Shown here: one piece after another, positions 19,434 to 32,456 of the stretch | How positions within the stretch are numbered: the first letter of the stretch is position 1 | How the letters are laid out: every line of letters begins with the position of its first letter | The notes under the pieces: model-generated | Told to the model about the DNA's origin: nothing | The model's database searches: none | Seen by the model: the letters and a program-made list of their open reading frames with translations, nothing else | Assembly (NCBI RefSeq): GCF_005860765.1 | Contig: NZ_VCEI01000021.1 | Span: forward strand, 930,001 to 994,000 | Reading direction: 5' to 3' | Source of the DNA: Dyadobacter sediminis | GTDB lineage: Bacteria > Bacteroidota > Bacteroidia > Cytophagales > Spirosomataceae | DNA: 64,000 bases | Translations under genes and position numbers: made by a program

Positions 19434-20729
19434 TTATGAAAAAAAGTTTTCTTTTTCCGTTGTCTGCAAATCTTTCACCATGGTTTTAAAAGCATCATTA
19501 TATTGTACTTCTACACGGCTCAGCGTTTGTTTTACAGTTTGCTCGGCACTTTCATAATGATCGTAAACTTTCATTAACTGATCCGAAATCTGTTGTCCGT
19601 TGCTTTCCATGATCTCGAAAGTCCAGTCTTTCAATCCCAGGTCATAATACATCTGTCCTTTGATGGTATCTTCCGGCTGACGCAGGTAAAAAGCAGGTGT
19701 ATTATTTGCTATGGCAATAATCGGCGAATGACATTCCAGGCTGAGAACAGTATGTGCTTCCCTGTAGAGCGAAGCAGCTTCATCCGGCAGCCAGTAGCCA
19801 TGTTTTACAATAAAAGGCTTTACATCTTCCGGCAAAGGATTTACAAGCAGCTCATCTATGATATCTACCTGATACGTCATCTCCGGGCACACGACTATTT
19901 TGTTTCCGGTTTTACGTACCCATGTGATCATTGCTTCACGCACTTTTGAATGATCTTCTTCTTTGTATTTATCATTCAGCGCAATCGTCTCCTGAATTTT
20001 TTCCTGAGACCATCCTGCGTTTTTCGGCCTCATTTTATAATAGGGTGTAAGCCGCAGGCGCGGAATGACACAAATGAATTTGCGGGCTTCCAGTTTATTG
20101 TCTTTGATAAAACTGGCCGCCTTGTTATCATCATGAATCTCAAGGGCAAAAGTGGCATCCGGAGCAAATCGGATGAATTCTCCTGAAATCCCGTTTTCAT
20201 TCAAAACCTTTATGGAAGCTGTTTCCCGGGTAAAAATAAAAGATGCTTTTTGCAGCAAGGATTTCAGATCCGGCTTGATTTCCTGGATCGTTACCCCAAA
20301 AATTCCGAATGGTTTGTCGGTGTGTGCAGCCCAAGCCTGTAGGTAATTGGCTGCAACAACATACGGTCCTGAACCGTGAATAAAGAAATCTGCTTCCTGA
20401 AATGCTTCGCGAACCGACTCGCTTTGCGGTATAAGTTTATCGTTGACTTCGCCGTGAATTACTTTTACATCCGGATAATGCTTGCCGAGCATGGCTTCAA
20501 CCATTTCACTCCGGTTTCTTTTCCAGAGGATAATATTCACATGTGGAAGCCTTTTGCGAATAAGACCAATCAATCCCGGTGTATGGGCAATATCTCCGAT
20601 ATTTACATCCTGCCACCCGGAAACCAGCAATAAGGTCGGGTTTGTCTTTTTTGTCATCTTCACGATTGAAGTGGACAGTAAGGCACCCGTTAAAATACCA
20701 GCATGCTGGAGAAAATTTCTGCGATCCAT
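19434..20729 (-). CDS. Polysaccharide pyruvyl transferase-family protein with Tat-like signal
   Basis: 431 residues. The N-terminus MDRRNFLQHAGILTGALLS matches the twin-arginine pattern RRxFLx followed by a hydrophobic stretch, so it is predicted to be exported in folded form. The rest resembles the pyruvyl transferase family: GWQDVNIGDIAHTPGL near residue 38 (N-x-GD motif), DFFIHGSGPYVVAA, FTRETASIKVL, and LSLECHSPIIAIA, equivalent to the usual S-x-RLH-x-x-x-x-A motif but with CHS in place of RLH. A periplasmic location is odd for an enzyme needing phosphoenolpyruvate, so it may be a non-catalytic or differently acting relative. It sits between LytTR2 and the EPS-initiating transferase. Confidence 0.75.
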   Translation of the reverse strand: MDRRNFLQHAGILTGALLSTSIVKMTKKTNPTLLLVSGWQDVNIGDIAHTPGLIGLIRKRLPHVNIILWKRNRSEMVEAMLGKHYPDVKVIHGEVNDKLIPQSESVREAFQEADFFIHGSGPYVVAANYLQAWAAHTDKPFGIFGVTIQEIKPDLKSLLQKASFIFTRETASIKVLNENGISGEFIRFAPDATFALEIHDDNKAASFIKDNKLEARKFICVIPRLRLTPYYKMRPKNAGWSQEKIQETIALNDKYKEEDHSKVREAMITWVRKTGNKIVVCPEMTYQVDIIDELLVNPLPEDVKPFIVKHGYWLPDEAASLYREAHTVLSLECHSPIIAIANNTPAFYLRQPEDTIKGQMYYDLGLKDWTFEIMESNGQQISDQLMKVYDHYESAEQTVKQTLSRVEVQYNDAFKTMVKDLQTTEKENFFS

Positions 20730-22595: not shown

Positions 22596-23186
22596 TTAGT
22601 TTGTATGCAACACTTTCAATGTCTGAGAAAAGTCCTCGCAGCTTACTTTTACAAGCAGGATGCCGGTCGATAGCTGCGGCACATCCAGCGTGTACGATTC
22701 GGTTGCCTGGTTTTTGGCAACCTGTTTCTTCACCAGCGAACGTCCCTGCAAATCGTAGATCTCGATCGTCGGATTGCTGTTCATCGGGCCTGTGATCTGC
22801 GTCATCACCTTTCCTGCACGTACCGGATTGCCCAGGATCACGGCTTCCCACTTGGCCTCCACTTCGCTTTCATTGACCTGAACGGCTGGCAGAAGAAACG
22901 ATCTGGATGTTTGCTGCTCGATGAAAACCGTCAGGTTTGTAACGCCGTCCTCGGCCGTGTAGCGGATCACACAAGGTTCCGCAGGGATCTGCAGTTTGCC
23001 GGTTTCGTTGCTGATTTCGACAATCTGTTTTTTGCCGTCTACAACGAAGGCGTACTTGCCGTCAGCCACGGGCATCTGGATGGTCAGAGGCTTTGTTTTG
23101 GTAAATAAAGGTGCACTGAAAGAGGAGGATAAAGAAGTAACGATCAGTAAAACAATGAAGAGGAGGTTTTTACGTGCAGTGTTCAT
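22596..23186 (-). CDS. T9SS-sorted small companion paralogue A (Sec signal)
   Basis: 196 residues from the ATG at 23186; the frame extends upstream only to a GTG. A Sec-type signal (MNTARKNLLFIVLLIV..SFSA) is followed by a short domain shared with the proteins at 23476-23835 and 28353-28958: KPLTIQMP, GKYAFVVDGKKQIVEI, CVIRYTAEDGVTNLTVFI. Then comes EAVILGNPVRAGKV and a type A T9SS sorting domain ending QTLKVLHTN, with the typical EIYDLQGRSLVKK and STGILLVKV strands. It should be moved across the outer membrane by T9SS. Function is not known. Unlike its two paralogues it does not directly follow a lyase-fusion gene and it has no Tat-like leader. Confidence 0.8.
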   Translation of the reverse strand: MNTARKNLLFIVLLIVTSLSSSFSAPLFTKTKPLTIQMPVADGKYAFVVDGKKQIVEISNETGKLQIPAEPCVIRYTAEDGVTNLTVFIEQQTSRSFLLPAVQVNESEVEAKWEAVILGNPVRAGKVMTQITGPMNSNPTIEIYDLQGRSLVKKQVAKNQATESYTLDVPQLSTGILLVKVSCEDFSQTLKVLHTN

Positions 23187-23475: not shown

Positions 23476-23835
23476 TTACAACTTGCCTTTCATTTCTGAG
23501 TAAGTTTCAGAAAATCCGGGCACCAGAAACAGCTGTTGCGTATCCTGATCAACATTAACAATCAGATTTGTTTCTCCGTCGGAAGCAAGGTATTTGATCT
23601 CGCATGAATATGCCGGTGTAAAAAGCTGGCCTTTTTCATCAACGATATCCACGATTTGCTTTTTGCCATCTACATAAAAAATGTATGTGCCCTGTCCGGA
23701 AGCCATTTGTACAGATAATGGCTTTGTATAGGAATCCAGGTCTGCTTCACCTGAATCCGGAAGTTTGAATCCTGCCAGAACGGTAGTAAGGCTTAAGGAA
23801 GCAAACTGAAGGAAATTTCTGCGTTTGATATCCAT
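23476..23835 (-). CDS. Companion paralogue B, Tat-like leader, no sorting domain
   Basis: 119 residues. The leader MDIKRRNFLQFASLSLTTV carries a twin-arginine-like KRRNFLQ motif. The body matches the common domain of paralogues A and C (KPLSVQMASGQGTYIFYVDG, KQIVDIVDEKGQLF, CEIKYLASDGETNLIVNV, then FLVPGF), but the protein stops about 15 residues later. The E-A-V-I-L-G-N-P segment and the T9SS sorting domain seen in A and C are absent, and only about 45 bp remain before the terminator, so the end is a real loss or an ancestral short form, not a nearby frameshift. Its start lies about 25 bp after the stop of the lyase-fusion gene, so the two are probably one operon. Confidence 0.75.
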   Translation of the reverse strand: MDIKRRNFLQFASLSLTTVLAGFKLPDSGEADLDSYTKPLSVQMASGQGTYIFYVDGKKQIVDIVDEKGQLFTPAYSCEIKYLASDGETNLIVNVDQDTQQLFLVPGFSETYSEMKGKL

Positions 23836-23859
23836 GGCTGTGCAGTTTTGATTGATGTG

Positions 23860-26094
23860 TTATACAATTAACAATGGATTGGTTATACGGGATTCCAGCG
23901 ATGAAGTATACTGGACTTCCATATTGGCATATTCAATAACTATTTTTCTGGGCATTGGTGACCGGTAAATGCCGAATTTCCAGTATGGTCCGGTTGCATC
24001 CGGATATCCGATCCCGATATTGGCAATGTTAAGCAGTTCCTTTCCATCTTTCCACCATTGCAGCTGGCCATTGGTAGGAGAGAAGCGAATACGCATGACA
24101 TTTTTATGCCAGATGCCACGTGTGAACTGTGCCGTTCCTCTCAATATGGATTTCGGACTTTTTTTATGCGGGTTTTCGGTTGTTGCGCAAGTGTATACAT
24201 TGGCAGTATCCAAACCATCAAGCCGGATACCAAGTACCGGTGGCGAGCTGATGTCTCCCGCATCTTCGCTCGCATGGAACTGGCCTATGTAACAGAAGTC
24301 GGACGCTGCCAGAACCAGCGGTTCTCCGGGTTCTATTTTAATGGCGAATGAAAGCCACACATCTCTGTCATAGGGCATTTGGTAATTTTTTAGATAAAAC
24401 TCTGAGCGCTCTCTGTACTGATTGGTATAATCACCCGTCCAGACTTCTCCTGCATTTACTTCAACGCGGTACACCGGTGAGGATTTGTTCACAGCTTTCT
24501 GAAGCGACCATTGCTTGTTGGGTGTCTGGGTATTGTACAGTTTATCAAACATCGTAAGCATGGATCCGCTTACCCCGACAGAAGCATATTGTTCAGGAAA
24601 CAACGTGTGTGCGGTTTCTTCATGGAATTCATTTATTTCACTGGATTCATAGAAGTGGATAACCTGAATCTCGTTTTCGGACGGTACTACTTCATAACTG
24701 GCAGTAACCTGTTTTATCCAGTCACCGCCGTTTTTTCTTTGTATAAAAATATCAAATAAATCGCCTGAACTTGGTTTGGAAAGAGTAACTACGTCTGCTT
24801 TGCGGGTAACAGGCGTTGCGCCTGTCCGGATATAGCTAGTTGCTTCATCGCTGTTTTCAAGCTGTACGCCCCATACCAGAATCCCGCTCGAACCATCTCC
24901 GGCATACGATTGTTTGCCGTTGCTTATTTCAGGACCGATTACCGTTGAAGTGGTGGATGAGGAAGCAATGAAAGTGGCGGAACATCTGAACCAGCCTTGT
25001 CCTACGTTCTCTATTACTGAGTTTATAAAAACACTGCTTTTGTTGCCAATGATTCCGTTAACAAGATCGAAGTGGATGGTAAGCCCGTTCACATTGAAAT
25101 AAGCCCATTTACGTTCTGCCGCTTTGAAATAGACGCTTAAAGTATAGGTTCTTCCGGCTGCGGTAACTAAAGTTGGATTCGGGACAATGTAGTGCGAACT
25201 GGTGGAAGTAGTTTCTCTTATCTTGTAGCCATTCGTTTCACCATCCGGTGATTTGGTGGTTGTTATTGCAATGGTTGCAGATTGTTTACGCCAGGCTGCA
25301 ACTTCCATCTGTTGAGAATAGGGCACCAGGTTTGTTCCGGCAGGTTCGATCAAAGCACCAACAAGTTTCGGACCAGACTCGGCAAGGCTGTAATTGAACC
25401 TGAGACCCATATAAGGAGCATCCAATGTAGGCGTATAAGCAGTCATGTCTCTTCCAGGCTCCATTTGGGCACCCCATGCATAAATGTATTTATCAGGACT
25501 CCCCGCATAGCCTACTGTATTGTTGTCATTCATCAGGTAAATATGAAAACCTGAAACAACACCGAGGTCGGGCATAGCCGTTATCTGAAGCCTCCACCAG
25601 CCGTTTCCGCTATCGACTGCCTTGTAATTAACCAAGTTGGAGCTTTTTGTTATAAAAACACCGGTTGCAAGGTTGAATTTGATCGTCGGATTGCCGCCTG
25701 TGTAAGTGGTGGCATTTGAAAAACTGAGCTGTACCCGGCTTCGGGTTCCTGCCTTAAGATAAACACTTACTGTGACAGGCTGGCCTTGCGGGACATTCAG
25801 GTTTCGTGAAATCCGGTGTTCTCCGGTTGCAGTAGTTTCTGCAATCTTGTTTGCCGTAGCAGTTCCATCAACTGCCATGACATCGCTGGTAACAGAAGGC
25901 GTCACCCGTACATTAATCCAGGGCGTTCTATTGCAATTCTGACTTTGTGCCAACCAGTTTATGCCGGATTGGGCAAAGTGCAAGTAACCGTCAGAGCCAT
26001 AATAGGAAGCTTCACTTTCTCTTTGAAATGAAATGTTGCTATTGAGTTTGGATGGCTCTTCTCTAAAATCGAAAATTTGAATAGGTGTTGACAT
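23860..26094 (-). CDS. Leaderless fusion: two phage-spike-like binding domains plus polysaccharide lyase (module 1)
   Basis: 744 residues from the ATG at 26094 (the frame reaches a TTG six bases earlier). There is no signal peptide: it opens MSTPIQIFDFREEPSK. Residues about 50-235 and 240-440 are two related domains with features seen in phage tail/head-spike binding domains: DGTATANKIAETTATGEH, SVYLKAGTRSRVQLSF, GNGWWRLQI, YIYAWGAQMEPGRDMTAYTPT, then GALIEPAGTNLVPYSQ, SPDGETNGYKIRE, GQGWFRCSATF and ILVWGVQLE. A linker leads to a lyase-like domain (about 525-744) with YRERSEFYL, CYIGQFHAS (Gln-x-His), VMRIRFSPTNGQLQWWKDG and PYWKFGIYRSP, as in heparinase-I-fold lyases. It is followed by companion B. 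Confidence 0.75.
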   Translation of the reverse strand: MSTPIQIFDFREEPSKLNSNISFQRESEASYYGSDGYLHFAQSGINWLAQSQNCNRTPWINVRVTPSVTSDVMAVDGTATANKIAETTATGEHRISRNLNVPQGQPVTVSVYLKAGTRSRVQLSFSNATTYTGGNPTIKFNLATGVFITKSSNLVNYKAVDSGNGWWRLQITAMPDLGVVSGFHIYLMNDNNTVGYAGSPDKYIYAWGAQMEPGRDMTAYTPTLDAPYMGLRFNYSLAESGPKLVGALIEPAGTNLVPYSQQMEVAAWRKQSATIAITTTKSPDGETNGYKIRETTSTSSHYIVPNPTLVTAAGRTYTLSVYFKAAERKWAYFNVNGLTIHFDLVNGIIGNKSSVFINSVIENVGQGWFRCSATFIASSSTTSTVIGPEISNGKQSYAGDGSSGILVWGVQLENSDEATSYIRTGATPVTRKADVVTLSKPSSGDLFDIFIQRKNGGDWIKQVTASYEVVPSENEIQVIHFYESSEINEFHEETAHTLFPEQYASVGVSGSMLTMFDKLYNTQTPNKQWSLQKAVNKSSPVYRVEVNAGEVWTGDYTNQYRERSEFYLKNYQMPYDRDVWLSFAIKIEPGEPLVLAASDFCYIGQFHASEDAGDISSPPVLGIRLDGLDTANVYTCATTENPHKKSPKSILRGTAQFTRGIWHKNVMRIRFSPTNGQLQWWKDGKELLNIANIGIGYPDATGPYWKFGIYRSPMPRKIVIEYANMEVQYTSSLESRITNPLLIV

Positions 26095-26876
26095 TTTCAA
26101 TACATTTAGGGAATAACTTTAAATAAATTCGAATAGGTATCGAAAAGAGCTTAGAGTAAATGACTTATGTAAATCTCTATAAATTGTTTGTAGTACAAAT
26201 TTGATAAATATTATACGTATTTATTTGGTATTAATTATTAATTAAAGCTATGTAACAAAATTTAATATTCAAAATAAATTTTACAAACTAGTATTACAAA
26301 AGGGCATTTAAATAAAGTCAGTATGGATTGATCTGATACGTTTTGTTCAAATAGTTTTTAACAAAAGAACTTGAATGCTTGCTCAGAACTAAGCCGTCCA
26401 AGCTGGAATTACTAAATAGCAGAATGAAGTATGTAAATGGATTAGAAAAGTAAATGGAAAGAAGTGCAAGAATTGAGATTGTAGTATTTATTTTATAATA
26501 ACGTGTTTTTGTTTGTAGCTTTCCTCACAAGGAGTTTGTAAGTCTAACCGCATTTTAATATCAGTGAGGAAGTATTCGGTTACTTTTGCATTGGAGTAAA
26601 GGCAAGGCTTTGGAAAATGCACACAATCCTGTATGAAGCAGTTTGCAATTTGTCAAGTGCACAGCTTTCCATAAAATTGAACTTTCTCCGTATTACGGAA
26701 ACATTAACTCTTTTGCGGACAACGACTATTCTTTGAAACGGCAATGTTAGGGACCGGATTTTTCAGTAACTTACAGATATGCTGTACATTGCCTGATGCA
26801 AGAAGAAAGTAGCGCCGTAATGAACCAGGCATCCGGACCTATGTTGGAAATCTTTATCAAACATCTTTAATCTTTC
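26095..26876. other. Long divergent intergenic region, no gene seen
   Basis: About 780 bp of AT-rich DNA between the divergent lyase-fusion and outer-membrane protein genes. TACTTTTG at 26581-26588 matches the plus-strand -7 consensus, but without a -33 element and about 290 bp from the next start. No hairpin, tandem repeat or credible ORF was found. Confidence 0.5.
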
Positions 26877-28226
26877 ATGAAAAGATTGTATCTCTTTTTC
26901 TTCATGCTTGCAAGCAGCAGTTCATTTGCTCAGTTCAGCACGACAGAATTTAACCAGTATGAATTAACCAATACGTTCTATAATCCTGCTGTCCTGCAAG
27001 TTCCTGAATCGCATAAATGGTCTGCTCATTATGCGTCCCTGTATTTCAGGTCTTCTGCCAATACAGCCAAATTCTCCTTGTTCACGGTATTTCATAATGA
27101 TCTTTTACGCGGAAGCATTTTAGGAATAAAAAAACCGTCATCGGGCTATGCTGAAATCGGATTACTCGGGCCTTCGTTTGCAATCCGTCTCGATGAGAAA
27201 ACGAGTATTGCAGTTACAACCCGTTCGCGCGTGATAGCTAACTATTCAGACGTAATTGGCCGGCTGATTTCGGAAATCGGCGAGACGGCGAAGAAGGTTT
27301 ATACGTATCCAAGCCATATCGTGGCAGAGAAGGATATGCGCATGAATACCGCAGTATTCAATGACTTAGGCATATCGGTTTCCAGAACGTTATGGTCGGG
27401 CGAGCATGCGAGAATCCGGGGAGGGGCTACTTTACGATACATTAACGGTGTCGCAAACAGTTCAATGCTTTCATCGGATCTGGTAGGAACCATTAAGAAA
27501 AACAAAACAAAAGGAAGTTATCTGACGGATGCAACCGGTAAAGTATCTGCGCAGACATCCGGAAATTTCCTTGCAGAATTCGGCCTTCTGGGTTTTTTGA
27601 AACCACGGAAAGCAAGTCTCGGCGCAGACTTCGGTCTGGTTTACGAATATTACAAAGATTTGAAACAAGCGCCGAAACTGACCATTATGGCTTCTGTAAC
27701 GGATGTCGGGAAAGTTCATTATATGCCTGATCCGAAGTATAGCAAATCTTATGATATAGGCATTCCGTCAAACATGAGGCTTTACTTCAACAACAGCATC
27801 AAGTTTTCATCATTCAGCCATACAACCAGAATTTACGATAAATACAGCAAGTTTTTCAAGCAGACTGATACTTTCAAAAAGCAGTATTCATACAGGCTGC
27901 CCATGATGATCCGCTTCAAAATGCATTATAACATCAATGATGCTTACAGTGTGCTTGTTGATGCCGGAATGGACACCAGGAAAAAAGACTTTGCGTATAA
28001 CCTGCATAGTCCGGCTTATGCGGGCATAGTTCCCACATGGAGAAACCACAAGTTCAGAGTATCCGTACCGATTTCCTATCAGGAATATGCGGGTATCAAT
28101 ATCGGGGCAGGCGTGAAGTATAAAAGATTTTATTTCGGCAGCAGCAGCCTGATTTCCGCATTGTTCCGATCAAAACAGATTGATGCACAAATTGGTATGT
28201 CAATCGTTTCAGGAAATTTTAAATAA
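26877..28226 (+). CDS. Outer-membrane protein, DUF5723/PorP-SprF-like beta-barrel
   Basis: 449 residues with a clean Sec signal (MKRLYLFFFMLASSSSFAQF). The mature protein begins with TNTFYNPAVLQVPESHKW, resembling the N-P-A motif at the start of DUF5723 and PorP/SprF-type barrels. The rest is rich in alternating amphipathic strands with glycine and aromatic residues (RIRGGATLRYINGVAN, GIVPTWRNHKFRVSVPISY, NIGAGVKYKRFYFGSSS) and ends without a sorting domain. It is alone on the plus strand between the two lyase/companion modules. PorP/SprF-like proteins often help anchor T9SS cargo at the surface, which would fit the neighbouring sorted proteins, but this is inference. Confidence 0.65.
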   Translation: MKRLYLFFFMLASSSSFAQFSTTEFNQYELTNTFYNPAVLQVPESHKWSAHYASLYFRSSANTAKFSLFTVFHNDLLRGSILGIKKPSSGYAEIGLLGPSFAIRLDEKTSIAVTTRSRVIANYSDVIGRLISEIGETAKKVYTYPSHIVAEKDMRMNTAVFNDLGISVSRTLWSGEHARIRGGATLRYINGVANSSMLSSDLVGTIKKNKTKGSYLTDATGKVSAQTSGNFLAEFGLLGFLKPRKASLGADFGLVYEYYKDLKQAPKLTIMASVTDVGKVHYMPDPKYSKSYDIGIPSNMRLYFNNSIKFSSFSHTTRIYDKYSKFFKQTDTFKKQYSYRLPMMIRFKMHYNINDAYSVLVDAGMDTRKKDFAYNLHSPAYAGIVPTWRNHKFRVSVPISYQEYAGINIGAGVKYKRFYFGSSSLISALFRSKQIDAQIGMSIVSGNFK

Positions 28227-28270
28227 GTACGCTTAGTACAATTGCTTACCCATTTTCTGAGTGTGGCGGA

Positions 28271-28314
28271 TTGTTGTAAAATACTTCAGATCTGACAAAA
28301 GTATTTTACAACAA
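28271..28314. terminator. Perfect 16-bp inverted repeat between convergent genes
   Basis: Arms TTGTTGTAAAATACTT (28271-28286) and its exact complement (28299-28314) with a 12-nt loop, lying between the convergent outer-membrane protein and companion C genes. Neither side has a real T-run outside the stem, so termination by this hairpin is probable but not certain. Confidence 0.6.
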
Positions 28315-28352
28315 TCGGGTTTGTTCGTTCCGCCGTATTCATGCAGCATATT

Positions 28353-28958
28353 TCAGTTTACATGCAGGACTTTCATAGTCCTTGTGAATTCGTCGCTACT
28401 TACTTTTACCAGTAACATGCCTTTTGCAAAACGCTGCACATCAAGCGTAAATGCTTCTACCGACTTGGTTTTGTTAACTGTTTCTTTGATCAGGGAACGA
28501 CCCTGAAGATCAAGAACTTCAATAACGGCATTGGTGTTGACAGGGCCGGAGATCTGTGTGGATAATTTTCCTTCACGGATCGGATTGCCCAGTATGACTG
28601 CATTCCATTCGGAATCATTTTCAACTTCTGTTAACGGTACTCCGGGCAGCAGGTGAGATTTGGCGGTATCCTGATCAATGTAAACGGACAACTTGGTTAC
28701 GCCATCGGCTGCAATATATTTGATAATACACGAATGTGTAGGAATTCTCAGGATGCCTTTTTCATTTGTTATCTGAAGCAGTTGTTTTTGCCCGTCAACA
28801 AAGAACACATATTTGCCATCCCGGGAAGGCATGATGATATCCAGCGTTTTGGTATCCGGAGGAGTTGGTTTTTCCGGAAGTGCTACTTTAAATCCTGATG
28901 CTACAGTTGCCAGACCTAAGGAAACGACCTGAATAAAGTTCCTGCGTTTAAGTATCAT
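28353..28958 (-). CDS. Companion paralogue C, Tat-like leader plus T9SS sorting domain
   Basis: 201 residues. The leader MILKRRNFIQVVSLGLATV carries the same KRRNF(I/L)Q twin-arginine-like motif as companion B. The shared domain follows (TLDIIMPSRDGKYVFFVDG, KQLLQITNEKGILR, CIIKYIAADGVTKLSVYI), then NAVILGNPIREGKLSTQIS and a type A T9SS sorting domain (VIEVLDLQGRSLIKE, FAKGMLLVKV) ending MKVLHVN. Its start lies 24 bp after the stop of the second lyase fusion, the same arrangement as companion B after the first. Combining a Tat-like leader with T9SS sorting is uncommon. No enzymatic motif is seen. Confidence 0.8.
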   Translation of the reverse strand: MILKRRNFIQVVSLGLATVASGFKVALPEKPTPPDTKTLDIIMPSRDGKYVFFVDGQKQLLQITNEKGILRIPTHSCIIKYIAADGVTKLSVYIDQDTAKSHLLPGVPLTEVENDSEWNAVILGNPIREGKLSTQISGPVNTNAVIEVLDLQGRSLIKETVNKTKSVEAFTLDVQRFAKGMLLVKVSSDEFTRTMKVLHVN

Positions 28959-28982
28959 GTTTGTTTAATTAAGCAAAGATTT

Positions 28983-31232
28983 TTACGATATTATAAGTGG
29001 ATTATTGATGCGGGATAATAGTGAATTTACAGAATCAACTTCCATATTAGCATATTCAACAGCAATTGTATTTGACATTGGTGACCGGTAAATACCAAAT
29101 TTCCAGTATGGTCCCACTTCGTCCGGATAGCCGATTCCGATACCGGAGAGATTAACTAATTCCTGTCCGTCTTTCCACCATTGCAACTGTCCGTTGGTAG
29201 GAGAAAAACGGATACGCATGACGTTTTTATGCCATACTCCGCGTTCAAACTGGGTTGTCCCTCTCAATATTGATTTCGGACTTTTGTAATGCGGGTTATC
29301 CGTGGTCGAACAAGTGAATACCTTGATTGTATCCAGTCCTTCCAGCCTTATTCCAAGCAACGGCGGGGAACTGATATCGCGGTCATCTTCGCTGGCATGA
29401 AACTGTCCAAGATAGCAGAAGTCTGCCGATTCAAGGTTTAATGCAGTGCCTGGTGCTATTCTGATGGCGAATGAAAGCCATATGTCACGGTTAAATGGAA
29501 GGTTTGCGTTCTTAAGGTAAAGTTCCGAGCGTTCGCGATCCTGATTGTTGGCATCACCCGACCAAACGTCATTGGAATTGACCTGTGCGCGAAATATCGG
29601 AGCGGTTTTGTTCACTGCCTTCTGCATGGACCACGACTTGCTGGGCGACTGGGTATAATACACTTCATTAAACAACGGAACAGTTGTGCCGCTAATGCCT
29701 ATGGATTCGTATACCTGCGGGAACATGGCCTGAACACTTTCTTCCTTTTCACGTATTGTTACACCGGAATTGTATAAGTTGATCAGAAGTATTTCGTTGA
29801 TTGAGGTTTCAACCTGATAACTGCCGCTTTTACCATTTATCCAGCTGCCGCCTTGTGACCGCTGGATAAATACATCGTATTGATTGGAATCCGGTGAACT
29901 CAGCGTTACAATGTCTGCATCTCTGGTCATAGCGCTTCCGTTGGTACGAATATAACTGGTTGGAACTATACTTTTTTCAAATTGTACGCCCCATACTAAA
30001 ATTCCGCTGTTACCGTCGCCGCCATATGACTGCTGGCCATTGTACTTTTCCGCACCGATGTAAATGGAAGTGGAAGAAGAGGAGGCGATGAATGTGGCGC
30101 TGCAGCGGAACCATCCGTTTCCGGCATTTTCAATCATCCAGGAAATGAAAAGGCTATTCTTGTTTCCGAGCGTTCCGTTATTCAGGTCAAAATGAATGGA
30201 TGATCCGTTTACGTTAAAATAGCCCCAGTCACGTTCCGCTTCGTGCAGAAAGGCGCTTAATGTGTAGGTACCGCCGGAAGAAGTAGTGAGGTTTGAAACG
30301 GGTGCAATGTTATGGGTGGCACTGGAAGTGTTTTCCTTTATTTTATACGCGCTGCTAACGCCGTCCGGTGATTTCGTGCCGGATGTAACGACTGTTGAAT
30401 TTCTCTTGTTCCAGGCGCTTGTGTCAAATTTCTGGGAGTAGGGAATCAGATTGGTGGATTCGGGTTCGATAAGTGCGCCGGCAAGTGTAGGCGTGGAACC
30501 GGAAAGATTGTAATTGTACCGCAAACTACTGCCATACAAAGGAGCTACCGTAGTAGGTATATATGTTGACATATTAGTTCCGGCCTCCATCTGCGCGCCC
30601 CATGCATAAATGTATTTATCACTACCTCCACTGTAATTGATCCCATTGGAATCGTTTACTATATACAGATGAAATCCGGAAGCAGTTCCAAGGTCCGGCA
30701 TTCCGGTCAGTTTGATTCTCCACCATCCGTTTCCGCTGTTGACAGCTTGGGAACTCACAACATTGGAACTTATGGAAGTGAAAGTGCCTGTTGCCAGATT
30801 AAACTTCACGGTAGGATTTCCGCCTGTGTACGATGAACCGTTTGAAAAGCTGAACTGTATCCTGCTTCGGGTGCCTGCTTTGACGTAAATGCTCAGCGTT
30901 ACGGCTTCACCTTTTGTTACAGAAAGGTTCCTGGACATTCTGTGTTCGCCGGTGACCTGATTTTCAGTGATTTTATTAGCACTGAATGTGCCGTCCGGTG
31001 CTGCAATGCTGCTCGGTGTGCTTACCGAAACGCCGACACTGATCCAAGGTTTGACAGTCAGGTTCTGGCTTTGCATAAGCCAGTTTTGGCCAAGTTGTGA
31101 AAAGTGCAGAAGGCCGTCCGCTCCGTAATAGGATGCTTCGCCTTTGCGTGAAAATAGGATGTTGCTGTTTGTAAATGTAGATTCCTGCCTAAAATCAAAG
31201 ATACTTAGTGGTGCCAACTCGTTCAAAAGCAT
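28983..31232 (-). CDS. Leaderless fusion: two phage-spike-like binding domains plus polysaccharide lyase (module 2)
   Basis: 749 residues from a proper ATG, paralogous along its whole length to the protein at 23860-26094. It opens MLLNELAPLSIFDFRQEST with no signal peptide. Two binding-type domains are seen: SANKITENQVTGEHRMSR, GNGWWRIKLTGMPD, YIYAWGAQMEAGTNMSTYIPT, then GALIEPESTNLIPYSQKF, SPDGVSSAYKIKENT, GNGWFRCSATF and GILVWGVQFE. The lyase-like domain has RERSELYLKN, CYLGQFHAS (Gln-x-His), MRIRFSPTNGQLQWWKDGQE and PYWKFGIYRSP. The end INNPLIIS corresponds to ITNPLLIV in module 1. Companion C follows 24 bp later. Because both copies lack a leader, this is not an annotation slip in one of them. 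Confidence 0.75.
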   Translation of the reverse strand: MLLNELAPLSIFDFRQESTFTNSNILFSRKGEASYYGADGLLHFSQLGQNWLMQSQNLTVKPWISVGVSVSTPSSIAAPDGTFSANKITENQVTGEHRMSRNLSVTKGEAVTLSIYVKAGTRSRIQFSFSNGSSYTGGNPTVKFNLATGTFTSISSNVVSSQAVNSGNGWWRIKLTGMPDLGTASGFHLYIVNDSNGINYSGGSDKYIYAWGAQMEAGTNMSTYIPTTVAPLYGSSLRYNYNLSGSTPTLAGALIEPESTNLIPYSQKFDTSAWNKRNSTVVTSGTKSPDGVSSAYKIKENTSSATHNIAPVSNLTTSSGGTYTLSAFLHEAERDWGYFNVNGSSIHFDLNNGTLGNKNSLFISWMIENAGNGWFRCSATFIASSSSTSIYIGAEKYNGQQSYGGDGNSGILVWGVQFEKSIVPTSYIRTNGSAMTRDADIVTLSSPDSNQYDVFIQRSQGGSWINGKSGSYQVETSINEILLINLYNSGVTIREKEESVQAMFPQVYESIGISGTTVPLFNEVYYTQSPSKSWSMQKAVNKTAPIFRAQVNSNDVWSGDANNQDRERSELYLKNANLPFNRDIWLSFAIRIAPGTALNLESADFCYLGQFHASEDDRDISSPPLLGIRLEGLDTIKVFTCSTTDNPHYKSPKSILRGTTQFERGVWHKNVMRIRFSPTNGQLQWWKDGQELVNLSGIGIGYPDEVGPYWKFGIYRSPMSNTIAVEYANMEVDSVNSLLSRINNPLIIS

Positions 31233-31655: not shown

Positions 31656-32456
31656 CTAGTCTTTCATTGAATCAAAACTTGCATGTTCATTTCCAACTTT
31701 CACATCCGAAAAATAAATGACTCGGTTGGTTACGATCGAGTTGTTCCTGTAAAATTTCCAGGGGGTTTTATAAATACCGATTTTGAAAAACGGACCTGTT
31801 TTGTCGTTGTAGTAATTGGGCCCTTTGTAATCGACAACCATTTTATCGTTTTCCCAGACTTCCAGAACGCCGTCCTCCTGATAAGAGAACCGGATATGGA
31901 AAAGCCAGTCTGTCCAGACCCCTTTTTTAATGTCACTTAATTCGATGGTCTTCTTCAAACTAATTGTCTTGTCCGTATTGACCGGATCACTGGCGGAATT
32001 AATGCATATTCTCCATTTTTCCTTGTCAGTCTGAAGGGAAATTGGCGCAGAACGCCACTTTTCTCCCAATGAAAAATCAGGAACTTCATGCCACTGCGCC
32101 AATACTTCAAATGTTGAATCGATTTCGTAATCCTTGGGAAGAAAAATACTGAATTTATACCAGCGTTCAATGTCCGCCGTTTTTTCCTTGGCCATTCGGA
32201 GTTCGGACCGATAGCCGTTATTGACTTTCTGGTCGTTGCGGTCCACTTCAAACCGGATGGCATTTCTTCCAGCGACCTGATCAGCACCGGTCAGCAGCTT
32301 TATGGAGTGCGGGCAGCAGCTTTCGGCCTTTTCCCAGTTTTTCTTATAATCCTTGTTTTGGAAAAAGTCCCGAAGAATAACATCATTTCGTTGGGCAATA
32401 ACTTTTCCTGACAAAACACAACCTGTAACAAGCAAGATACTGACCAATTTCTTCAT
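31656..32456 (-). CDS. Secreted polysaccharide lyase, heparinase-I-like fold
   Basis: 266 residues with a Sec signal (MKKLVSILLVTGCVLSGKVIAQ); the Cys at residue 13 lies inside the hydrophobic core and is not a typical lipobox. The mature protein is a single lyase domain: DFFQNKDYKKNW, AIRFEVDRND, GYRSELRMAK, LAQWHEVPDF (Gln-x-His catalytic-type motif), GVWTDWLFHIRFSYQEDG and GPFFKIGIYKTPWKF. It is related to the lyase domains of the two fusions but lacks their binding domains. It follows the GT4 gene by about 34 bp at the end of the EPS operon. A role in trimming or releasing an acidic EPS is inferred; the substrate is not determinable from sequence. Confidence 0.82.
   Translation of the reverse strand: MKKLVSILLVTGCVLSGKVIAQRNDVILRDFFQNKDYKKNWEKAESCCPHSIKLLTGADQVAGRNAIRFEVDRNDQKVNNGYRSELRMAKEKTADIERWYKFSIFLPKDYEIDSTFEVLAQWHEVPDFSLGEKWRSAPISLQTDKEKWRICINSASDPVNTDKTISLKKTIELSDIKKGVWTDWLFHIRFSYQEDGVLEVWENDKMVVDYKGPNYYNDKTGPFFKIGIYKTPWKFYRNNSIVTNRVIYFSDVKVGNEHASFDSMKD

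What the first reader, a model, noticed from the sequence alone, without database searches (positions are those of the whole stretch)
23476..31232. Duplicated module: leaderless phage-spike-like/lyase fusion plus small Tat-like companion
Seen: two paralogous proteins of about 745 residues (23860-26094 and 28983-31232), each with no signal peptide, two tandem domains with phage tail/spike-type binding patterns (for example DGTATANKIAE, WGAQMEPG, GALIEPAGTNLVPYS, WFRCSATF) and a C-terminal lyase domain with a Gln-x-His motif. Each is followed about 24 bp later by a small protein with a KRRNF-type leader. Known: similar binding domains occur in phage spikes, where they bring a depolymerase to a capsule. 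Inferred: a phage-derived depolymerase has been recruited into the EPS locus, acting on EPS inside the cell, during release or as a self/competitor polysaccharide remodeller. How a leaderless protein would reach polysaccharide is unexplained; the companion may be involved.
Basis: partly seen in the sequence, partly recalled or inferred. Interest (0 to 1): 0.8.

Follow-up and report, generated by a model that had tools for sequence, protein, structure and literature searches.

The report
Phage-spike lyases riding Tat-tagged partners
Some Dyadobacter bacteria carry up to nine copies of a domesticated phage-spike sugar-cutting enzyme that has no export tag of its own; several copies sit beside a small protein with a tag for exporting folded proteins, and a related species has that tag on the enzyme itself, so the enzyme probably leaves the cytoplasm by riding on its partner.

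Summary
In detail: two 61%-identical leaderless proteins on the minus strand carry two phage-tail/GTA-head-spike-like domains plus a heparinase-I-like PF14099 lyase, each followed 24 nt later by a small protein with a twin-arginine (Tat) signal. The genome (Dyadobacter) holds nine intact fusions; only two lie in this EPS locus. How a leaderless enzyme reaches polysaccharide has a supported but untested answer, Tat hitchhiking: (1) the companion family occurs in exactly the 4 of 48 Dyadobacter genomes with leaderless fusions; (2) in a fifth genome the fusions carry the Tat signal themselves and the companion family was not found; (3) companion paralogues not directly behind a fusion have Sec-type signals. 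Most Tat-type companions (8 of 13) also end in a T9SS-type C-terminal domain, so the pair may be relayed across the outer membrane; this is less certain. Limits: 9 fusions against 4 intact companions here, no complex could be modelled, relatives of both domains elsewhere use Sec-like leaders, and one copy lies about 5 kb from a contractile injection system. Label: new variant of a known kind (Tat hitchhiker pair) with phage-derived cargo. Confidence in hitchhiking about 0.6.

The parts
23860..26094 (-). Fusion W1, 744 aa, leaderless: two phage-spike-like domains plus PF14099 lyase (His607 in the Gln-x-His motif)
23476..23835 (-). Companion of W1, 119 aa, Tat-type signal (KRRNFLQ), short form without the C-terminal domain
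28983..31232 (-). Fusion W2, 749 aa, leaderless: two phage-spike-like domains (about residues 7-488) plus lyase
28986..29720 (-). Lyase domain of W2 (residues 505-749), heparinase-I-like fold; His612 falls on heparinase I His151
28353..28958 (-). Companion of W2, 201 aa: Tat-type signal (KRRNFIQ), small beta domain, T9SS-type C-terminal domain
22596..23186 (-). Companion paralogue with a Sec-type signal and T9SS-type domain (ATG at 23186; one of three near-identical copies in the genome); it lies about 0.3 kb beyond the W1 companion
31656..32456 (-). Stand-alone PF14099 lyase with a Sec-type signal

Best explanation
The window holds two copies of a dispersed Dyadobacter family of domesticated phage-type proteins: two spike-like, probably glycan-binding domains fused to a heparinase-I-like lyase (shown by sequence and fold). 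The enzyme is made without an export signal and, I infer, folds in the cytoplasm. It binds the small companion encoded just downstream and is carried through the Tat translocase on the companion's twin-arginine signal (hitchhiker export). In the periplasm it binds and cuts a polysaccharide, plausibly the cell's own EPS for the copies in the EPS locus. Where the companion also has a T9SS-type C-terminal domain the complex may be passed on to the surface (weaker inference). Shown: architecture, pairing, signal types, co-occurrence, and that the Tat signal sits on the enzyme in one species and on the partner in four. Inferred: complex formation, Tat dependence, substrate.
For: Companion family in 4 of 48 Dyadobacter genomes, the same 4 that have leaderless fusions; a chance of 5e-6 if genomes were independent, which they are not. 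All 5 G032 homologues (4 intact, 1 broken) start with RR-x-F signals, and the mature part aligns where the leaderless proteins begin. RR-[NK]-F in 13 of 13 intact Tat-type companions, 11 of them 11-125 nt behind a fusion stop. The Sec-type paralogues of the same domain show that the fold can go through Sec, so Tat on the fusion-linked members suggests cargo. Peak hydropathy of 12 Tat-type companion signals 1.38-1.99 and of 5 G032 fusions 1.37-2.03, against 2.58-3.14 for 5 Sec-type signals. TatC in 48 of 48 genomes. Fusion and companion distances agree (r 0.79 for 13 pairs, permutation p 1e-4; r 0.54, p 0.003 for 9). None of 42 other T9SS-domain proteins read in this genome has a clear Tat signal. 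A pyruvyl transferase of the same EPS locus also has an RR-x-F Tat-type signal.
Against: Nine fusions but four intact companions here, so five would need a shared companion or another route. The co-occurrence and the Tat/Sec contrast rest on few independent events. The distance agreement is also expected if the module was simply duplicated as a unit. The companion part of the joint model was not confident, so there is no docking evidence. Both domains can go through Sec elsewhere: the stand-alone lyase has a Sec-type signal, and several binding-domain or lyase relatives have Sec-like leaders (by eye). One copy lies near an eCIS.
Confidence: 0.6

Rival explanations
1. The leaderless fusions stay in the cytoplasm and are freed by cell lysis, acting like free phage spikes on polysaccharide of kin or competitors; the companion is exported for its own reasons.
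For: Leaderless like a phage virion protein; several fusions have no companion next to them.
Against: G032 homologues carry Tat signals; companion and leaderless fusions co-occur in the same 4 of 48 genomes.
Confidence: 0.17
2. The companion is only a periplasmic or surface partner (docking or T9SS adaptor) that meets the enzyme after export; the enzyme leaves by an unrecognised route of its own.
For: In G032 a different Sec-signal protein with a T9SS domain follows 3 of 4 intact Tat-signal fusions, so a downstream T9SS-domain partner is present even when the enzyme has its own signal.
Against: It does not explain why fusion-linked companions use Tat while their paralogues use Sec, nor what else would export the enzyme.
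Confidence: 0.13
3. The fusions are payloads of a contractile injection system (eCIS) and leave through it.
For: In G000 one copy (C1b) begins about 5.3 kb from an eCIS sheath gene with CIS_TMP, Pvc16_N, spike and gp25-like neighbours; in G013 the nearest relative of that copy is also near a sheath match.
Against: 8 of the 9 copies here lie elsewhere; G025 and G004 have leaderless fusions but no sheath match; G032 has a sheath, yet its fusions carry Tat signals. Only one sheath family was searched.
Confidence: 0.05

Closest known systems
Tat hitchhiker complexes (FAD-glucose dehydrogenase gamma/alpha, PMC6719666, passages; E. coli PaoABC, PMC4273604, start of abstract in the listing; Ni-Fe hydrogenase, named in PMC9251779, passages)
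   Same: A partner with a twin-arginine signal and a larger enzyme without one
   Different: Cargo is a phage-derived polysaccharide lyase rather than a redox enzyme; the signal is on the enzyme in a sister clade; most carriers also bear a T9SS-type domain. Binding and Tat dependence are not shown here
Phage tail and GTA head-spike receptor-binding proteins (Rcc01080, phrog_5939)
   Same: Binding domains related by sequence and fold; the RcGTA head-spike fibre binds capsule (PMC10218006, abstract)
   Different: Here fused to a lyase, in several dispersed chromosomal copies, without virion genes beside the window copies
Polysaccharide lyase PF14099 / heparinase I (fold of PL13, family number recalled)
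   Same: Pfam match, fold Z about 22, Gln-x-His motif
   Different: Phage-type N-terminal domains, no signal; substrate unknown, glucuronan lyase fits nearly as well (Z 20.6)
T9SS cargo proteins
   Same: C-terminal domain of the companion resembles those of mirolase, PorU and NucA
   Different: Tat-type instead of Sec signal, and it would carry a second, untagged protein

Membership tests
Tat hitchhiker complex | One partner has a twin-arginine signal | tested here: met
   RR-[NK]-F with a weakly hydrophobic core in 13 of 13 (motif) and 12 of 12 (core) Tat-type companions; no signal predictor was available
Tat hitchhiker complex | The cargo has no signal of its own | tested here: met
   24 leaderless fusions in four genomes, by eye; for the G000 C22c and G013 C39c copies the start codon is less certain because the frame stays open further upstream
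Tat hitchhiker complex | Partners bind before export | tested here: inconclusive
   Joint model: companion part mostly below pLDDT 60
Tat hitchhiker complex | Export of the cargo depends on Tat and on the partner | not testable with these tools
   TatC is present in 48 of 48 genomes
Polysaccharide lyase PF14099 | Score above the Pfam cut-off and lyase fold | tested here: met
   66.9 and 65.9 bits against 29.9; heparinase I Z 22.3
Polysaccharide lyase PF14099 | Lyase activity | not testable with these tools
   Motif conserved
Phage tail spike | Encoded among virion genes | tested here: not met
   Neighbours of the window copies are EPS genes; other copies were read by eye only
T9SS cargo (companion) | T9SS C-terminal domain | tested here: met
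   8 of 13 Tat-type companions have the domain; in the 6 of these scanned with Pfam 3 exceed the PF18962 cut-off and 3 fall below it; fold near mirolase, PorU, NucA, though other Ig-like domains are close
T9SS cargo (companion) | Sec signal, as stated for T9SS substrates in PMC9251779 (passage) | tested here: not met
   Tat-type signal in 13 of 13 Tat-type companions; the unpaired paralogues do have Sec-type signals
eCIS payload | Encoded with an eCIS cluster | tested here: inconclusive
   1 of 9 copies about 5.3 kb from a sheath gene; 2 of the 4 genomes with leaderless fusions gave no sheath match

The most novel reading that the evidence does not exclude
The companion is a two-membrane address label in one small protein: its Tat signal drags a folded, untagged phage-derived lyase across the inner membrane, and its T9SS-type C-terminal domain then drags the same folded complex through the outer-membrane T9SS channel. 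Within one genus the Tat signal sits on the enzyme or on the carrier, and the short companions keep their lyase in the periplasm.
Probability: 0.28. Interest if true: 0.85.

Novelty: new variant of a known kind. Interest (0 to 1): 0.68.

Why it matters
It would extend hitchhiking from redox enzymes to phage-derived carbohydrate-active enzymes, and would make it testable whether T9SS can carry a piggybacked protein.

Tried and rejected
Corrected start giving a signal: rejected for the window copies, the frame closes 8 and 2 codons upstream. Fusions confined to the EPS locus: rejected, 7 of 9 copies lie elsewhere. A phage protein of the whole architecture: none found; 38 of 50,697 phage records match W2 but none covers 80%, and the 3 IMG/VR loci match mainly the lyase end. 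Homology of the G032 downstream proteins to the companion: only the T9SS-type domain aligns, weakly (probability 7%, E 0.005), so I do not call them one family. Docking by a read-through chain: the first alignment misplaced the companion rows, the second left three rows for the companion, and the model says nothing on docking. Companion N-terminal beta domain: no informative match; rows are dominated by the C-terminal Ig-like domain, where T9SS domains (Z 10.6-11.8; PorZ 9.5) are only slightly above unrelated Ig-like folds (Z about 10-11). Tat on other T9SS-domain proteins: of 103 matches in the genome I put 50, in stretches chosen for convenience and without the companion family, into a script; 8 were cut at the N-terminus, 42 were read, 2 had RR-x-hydrophobic but with cores of 2.2, and none is a clear Tat signal. 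Companion beyond the genus: 3 of 390 genomes of the order match, all Dyadobacter. Other Foldseek rows (unrelated beta-sandwich proteins) were not pursued. The binding-domain relatives outside Dyadobacter were read as sequences only; their neighbours were not checked, so prophage or host origin is open.

Literature: searches (listings), passages of PMC6719666 and PMC9251779, abstract and outline of PMC10218006. None of what I saw describes this pair; that is no proof that it is not in print.

Dropped rows: the tree used 27 of 28 intact fusions (G013_C39c left out); its 13 pairs include two companions 2.8 and 3.9 kb from their fusion. One search typed 12 of the 13 Tat-type companions (the G013 counterpart of the W2 companion was left out).

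Full report
Where it lies. The window is part of a 6.2 Mb draft genome, taken as Dyadobacter from its best relatives in D. flavalbus and D. bucti. It holds an EPS locus: Wzz-like and Poly_export proteins, CpsB/CapC, a flippase, glycosyltransferases, two UDP-sugar dehydrogenases, a heparinase II/III-like protein, two pyruvyl transferases and a LytTR regulator.

The proteins. W1 (23860-26094) and W2 (28983-31232) are 61% identical. Their first two thirds match phage tail proteins, and W2, the one searched, matches the RcGTA head-spike fibre and phage baseplate or tail-fibre proteins in the PDB. The last third is PF14099. A model of W2 read through into its companion is mostly confident over the fusion (ten-residue means 62-97) and not over the companion. 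Within residues 7-488 it superposes on a phage Pa193 tail protein (Z 23.4, rmsd 3.9, 225 aligned), and residues 505-735 on heparinase I (Z 22.3, rmsd 2.8, 222 aligned), with glucuronan lyase at Z 20.6. Gln and His of the Gln-x-His motif are invariant in the seven lyases aligned, among them a prophage protein and the stand-alone lyase of the window. The His falls on position 151 of heparinase I (that stretch alone scores -1.0 bits, but it agrees with the fold), and a His151-to-Ala structure is listed.

Phage relatives. The closest lyase outside the family that I found lies in a phage contig with terminase and head genes (L043) and is 45% identical to the W2 lyase over 237 positions. Proteins with PHROG tail-fibre matches in G004 and G025 also end in this lyase. 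Nine genomes of the family outside Dyadobacter match in the binding-domain part; several of those proteins begin with Sec-like leaders by eye, and I did not check their neighbours. No phage record held the whole architecture.

A dispersed family. The genome has nine intact fusions on four contigs and one fragment. In the genus 7 of 48 genomes match at E 1e-20. Five have full-length fusions: G000 9, G013 9, G025 3, G004 3 and G032 4, plus one broken in G032.

The companion. Tat-type companions: G000 4 intact and one broken (behind a C22 copy), G013 5, G025 2, G004 2. Sec-type paralogues: 3 in G000 and 3 in G013. Of the 13 intact Tat-type ones, 11 start 11-125 nt after a fusion stop and two lie 2.8 and 3.9 kb downstream of a fusion in the same locus. 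Of the six Sec-type ones, two lie just beyond the W1-type companion (window 22596-23186 and its G013 counterpart), and four have no fusion in the stretches fetched around them. Four of the nine fusions here have an intact companion behind them. The companion profile hits 4 of 48 Dyadobacter genomes, those with leaderless fusions, and 3 of 390 genomes of the order, all Dyadobacter.

The signal swap. In G032 all five homologues begin with a twin-arginine signal (RRDFLK, RRSFLR, RREFLR, RRDFLR, RRNFLK), and the mature part of the four intact ones aligns where the leaderless proteins start. Two of these genes lie in an EPS locus with the same kinds of neighbours, judged by the starts of the proteins and, for the stand-alone lyase, by Pfam. 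No companion-family match was found in G032. Instead 3 of its 4 intact fusions are followed by another small protein with a Sec-type signal and a T9SS domain. So where the enzyme has a Tat signal the downstream partner uses Sec; where it has none, the companion behind it uses Tat; and companion paralogues not directly behind a fusion use Sec. Hitchhiker export predicts this, since the Tat system moves folded proteins and complexes (PMC9251779, passages). Hydropathy separates the two signal types without overlap in the peptides tested. In the fusion tree 23 leaderless proteins and 4 G032 proteins fall into two clades, rooted by midpoint only, so the direction of the change is unknown.

T9SS. 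Eight of 13 Tat-type companions end in an Ig-like domain; in six of these scanned, three exceed the PF18962 cut-off and three fall below it. In the model (mean pLDDT 79) it is closest to the C-terminal domain of mirolase (Z 11.8), PorU 11.1 and NucA 10.6, though unrelated Ig-like domains reach 10-11. SprA is present in 5 of 5 genomes with fusions. Of 42 other T9SS-domain proteins of this genome whose N-termini I read, none has a clear Tat signal. A review says that T9SS substrates have Sec signals and cross the outer membrane folded (PMC9251779, passages). Five of 13 companions lack the domain, so a relay cannot be general.

Weak points. Fusions outnumber companions. No complex was modelled. 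The co-occurrence and the Sec/Tat contrast rest on few independent events, and matching trees are also expected of a module duplicated as a unit. Relatives of both domains elsewhere go with Sec-like leaders. One copy, and its nearest relative in G013, lies near an eCIS, so another exit is not excluded for it. A role in trimming or clearing EPS is inferred from the locus and the lyase fold only.

Verdict. Observation confirmed and enlarged. Phage-related enzyme: very likely. Tat hitchhiking: about 0.6. A T9SS relay on top: about 0.28.

Noticed in passing
window 19434-20729 (-): A polysaccharide pyruvyl transferase of the EPS locus starts with MDRRNFLQ, a Tat-type signal; proteins with similar starts stand in the loci of G004, G025 and G032. 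A Tat-type pyruvyl transferase would be an unusual EPS enzyme.
   Followed up: partly
window 22596-23186; L130 3932-4573; L131 3395-4036: Three near-identical copies (97% over about 0.69 kb) of the Sec-type companion paralogue at unrelated places in the genome, with similarity ending just outside the gene, as if copied as a unit.
   Followed up: partly
L154 and L155 (G000:C1:955000-986000): A contractile injection system (sheath, Phage_base_V spike, gp25, CIS_TMP, Pvc16_N) about 5 kb from one leaderless fusion copy, with a PKD-domain protein and a DUF5122-like protein between.
   Followed up: partly
L043 5827-6714; L133 960-1847: A phage-encoded leaderless lyase of the same kind in a contig of G013 (probably D. 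flavalbus), beside terminase and head genes.
   Followed up: partly
window 26877-28226 (+): A DUF5723 protein lies between the two modules on the opposite strand; other opposite-strand genes stand between modules in G004 and G025.
   Followed up: no
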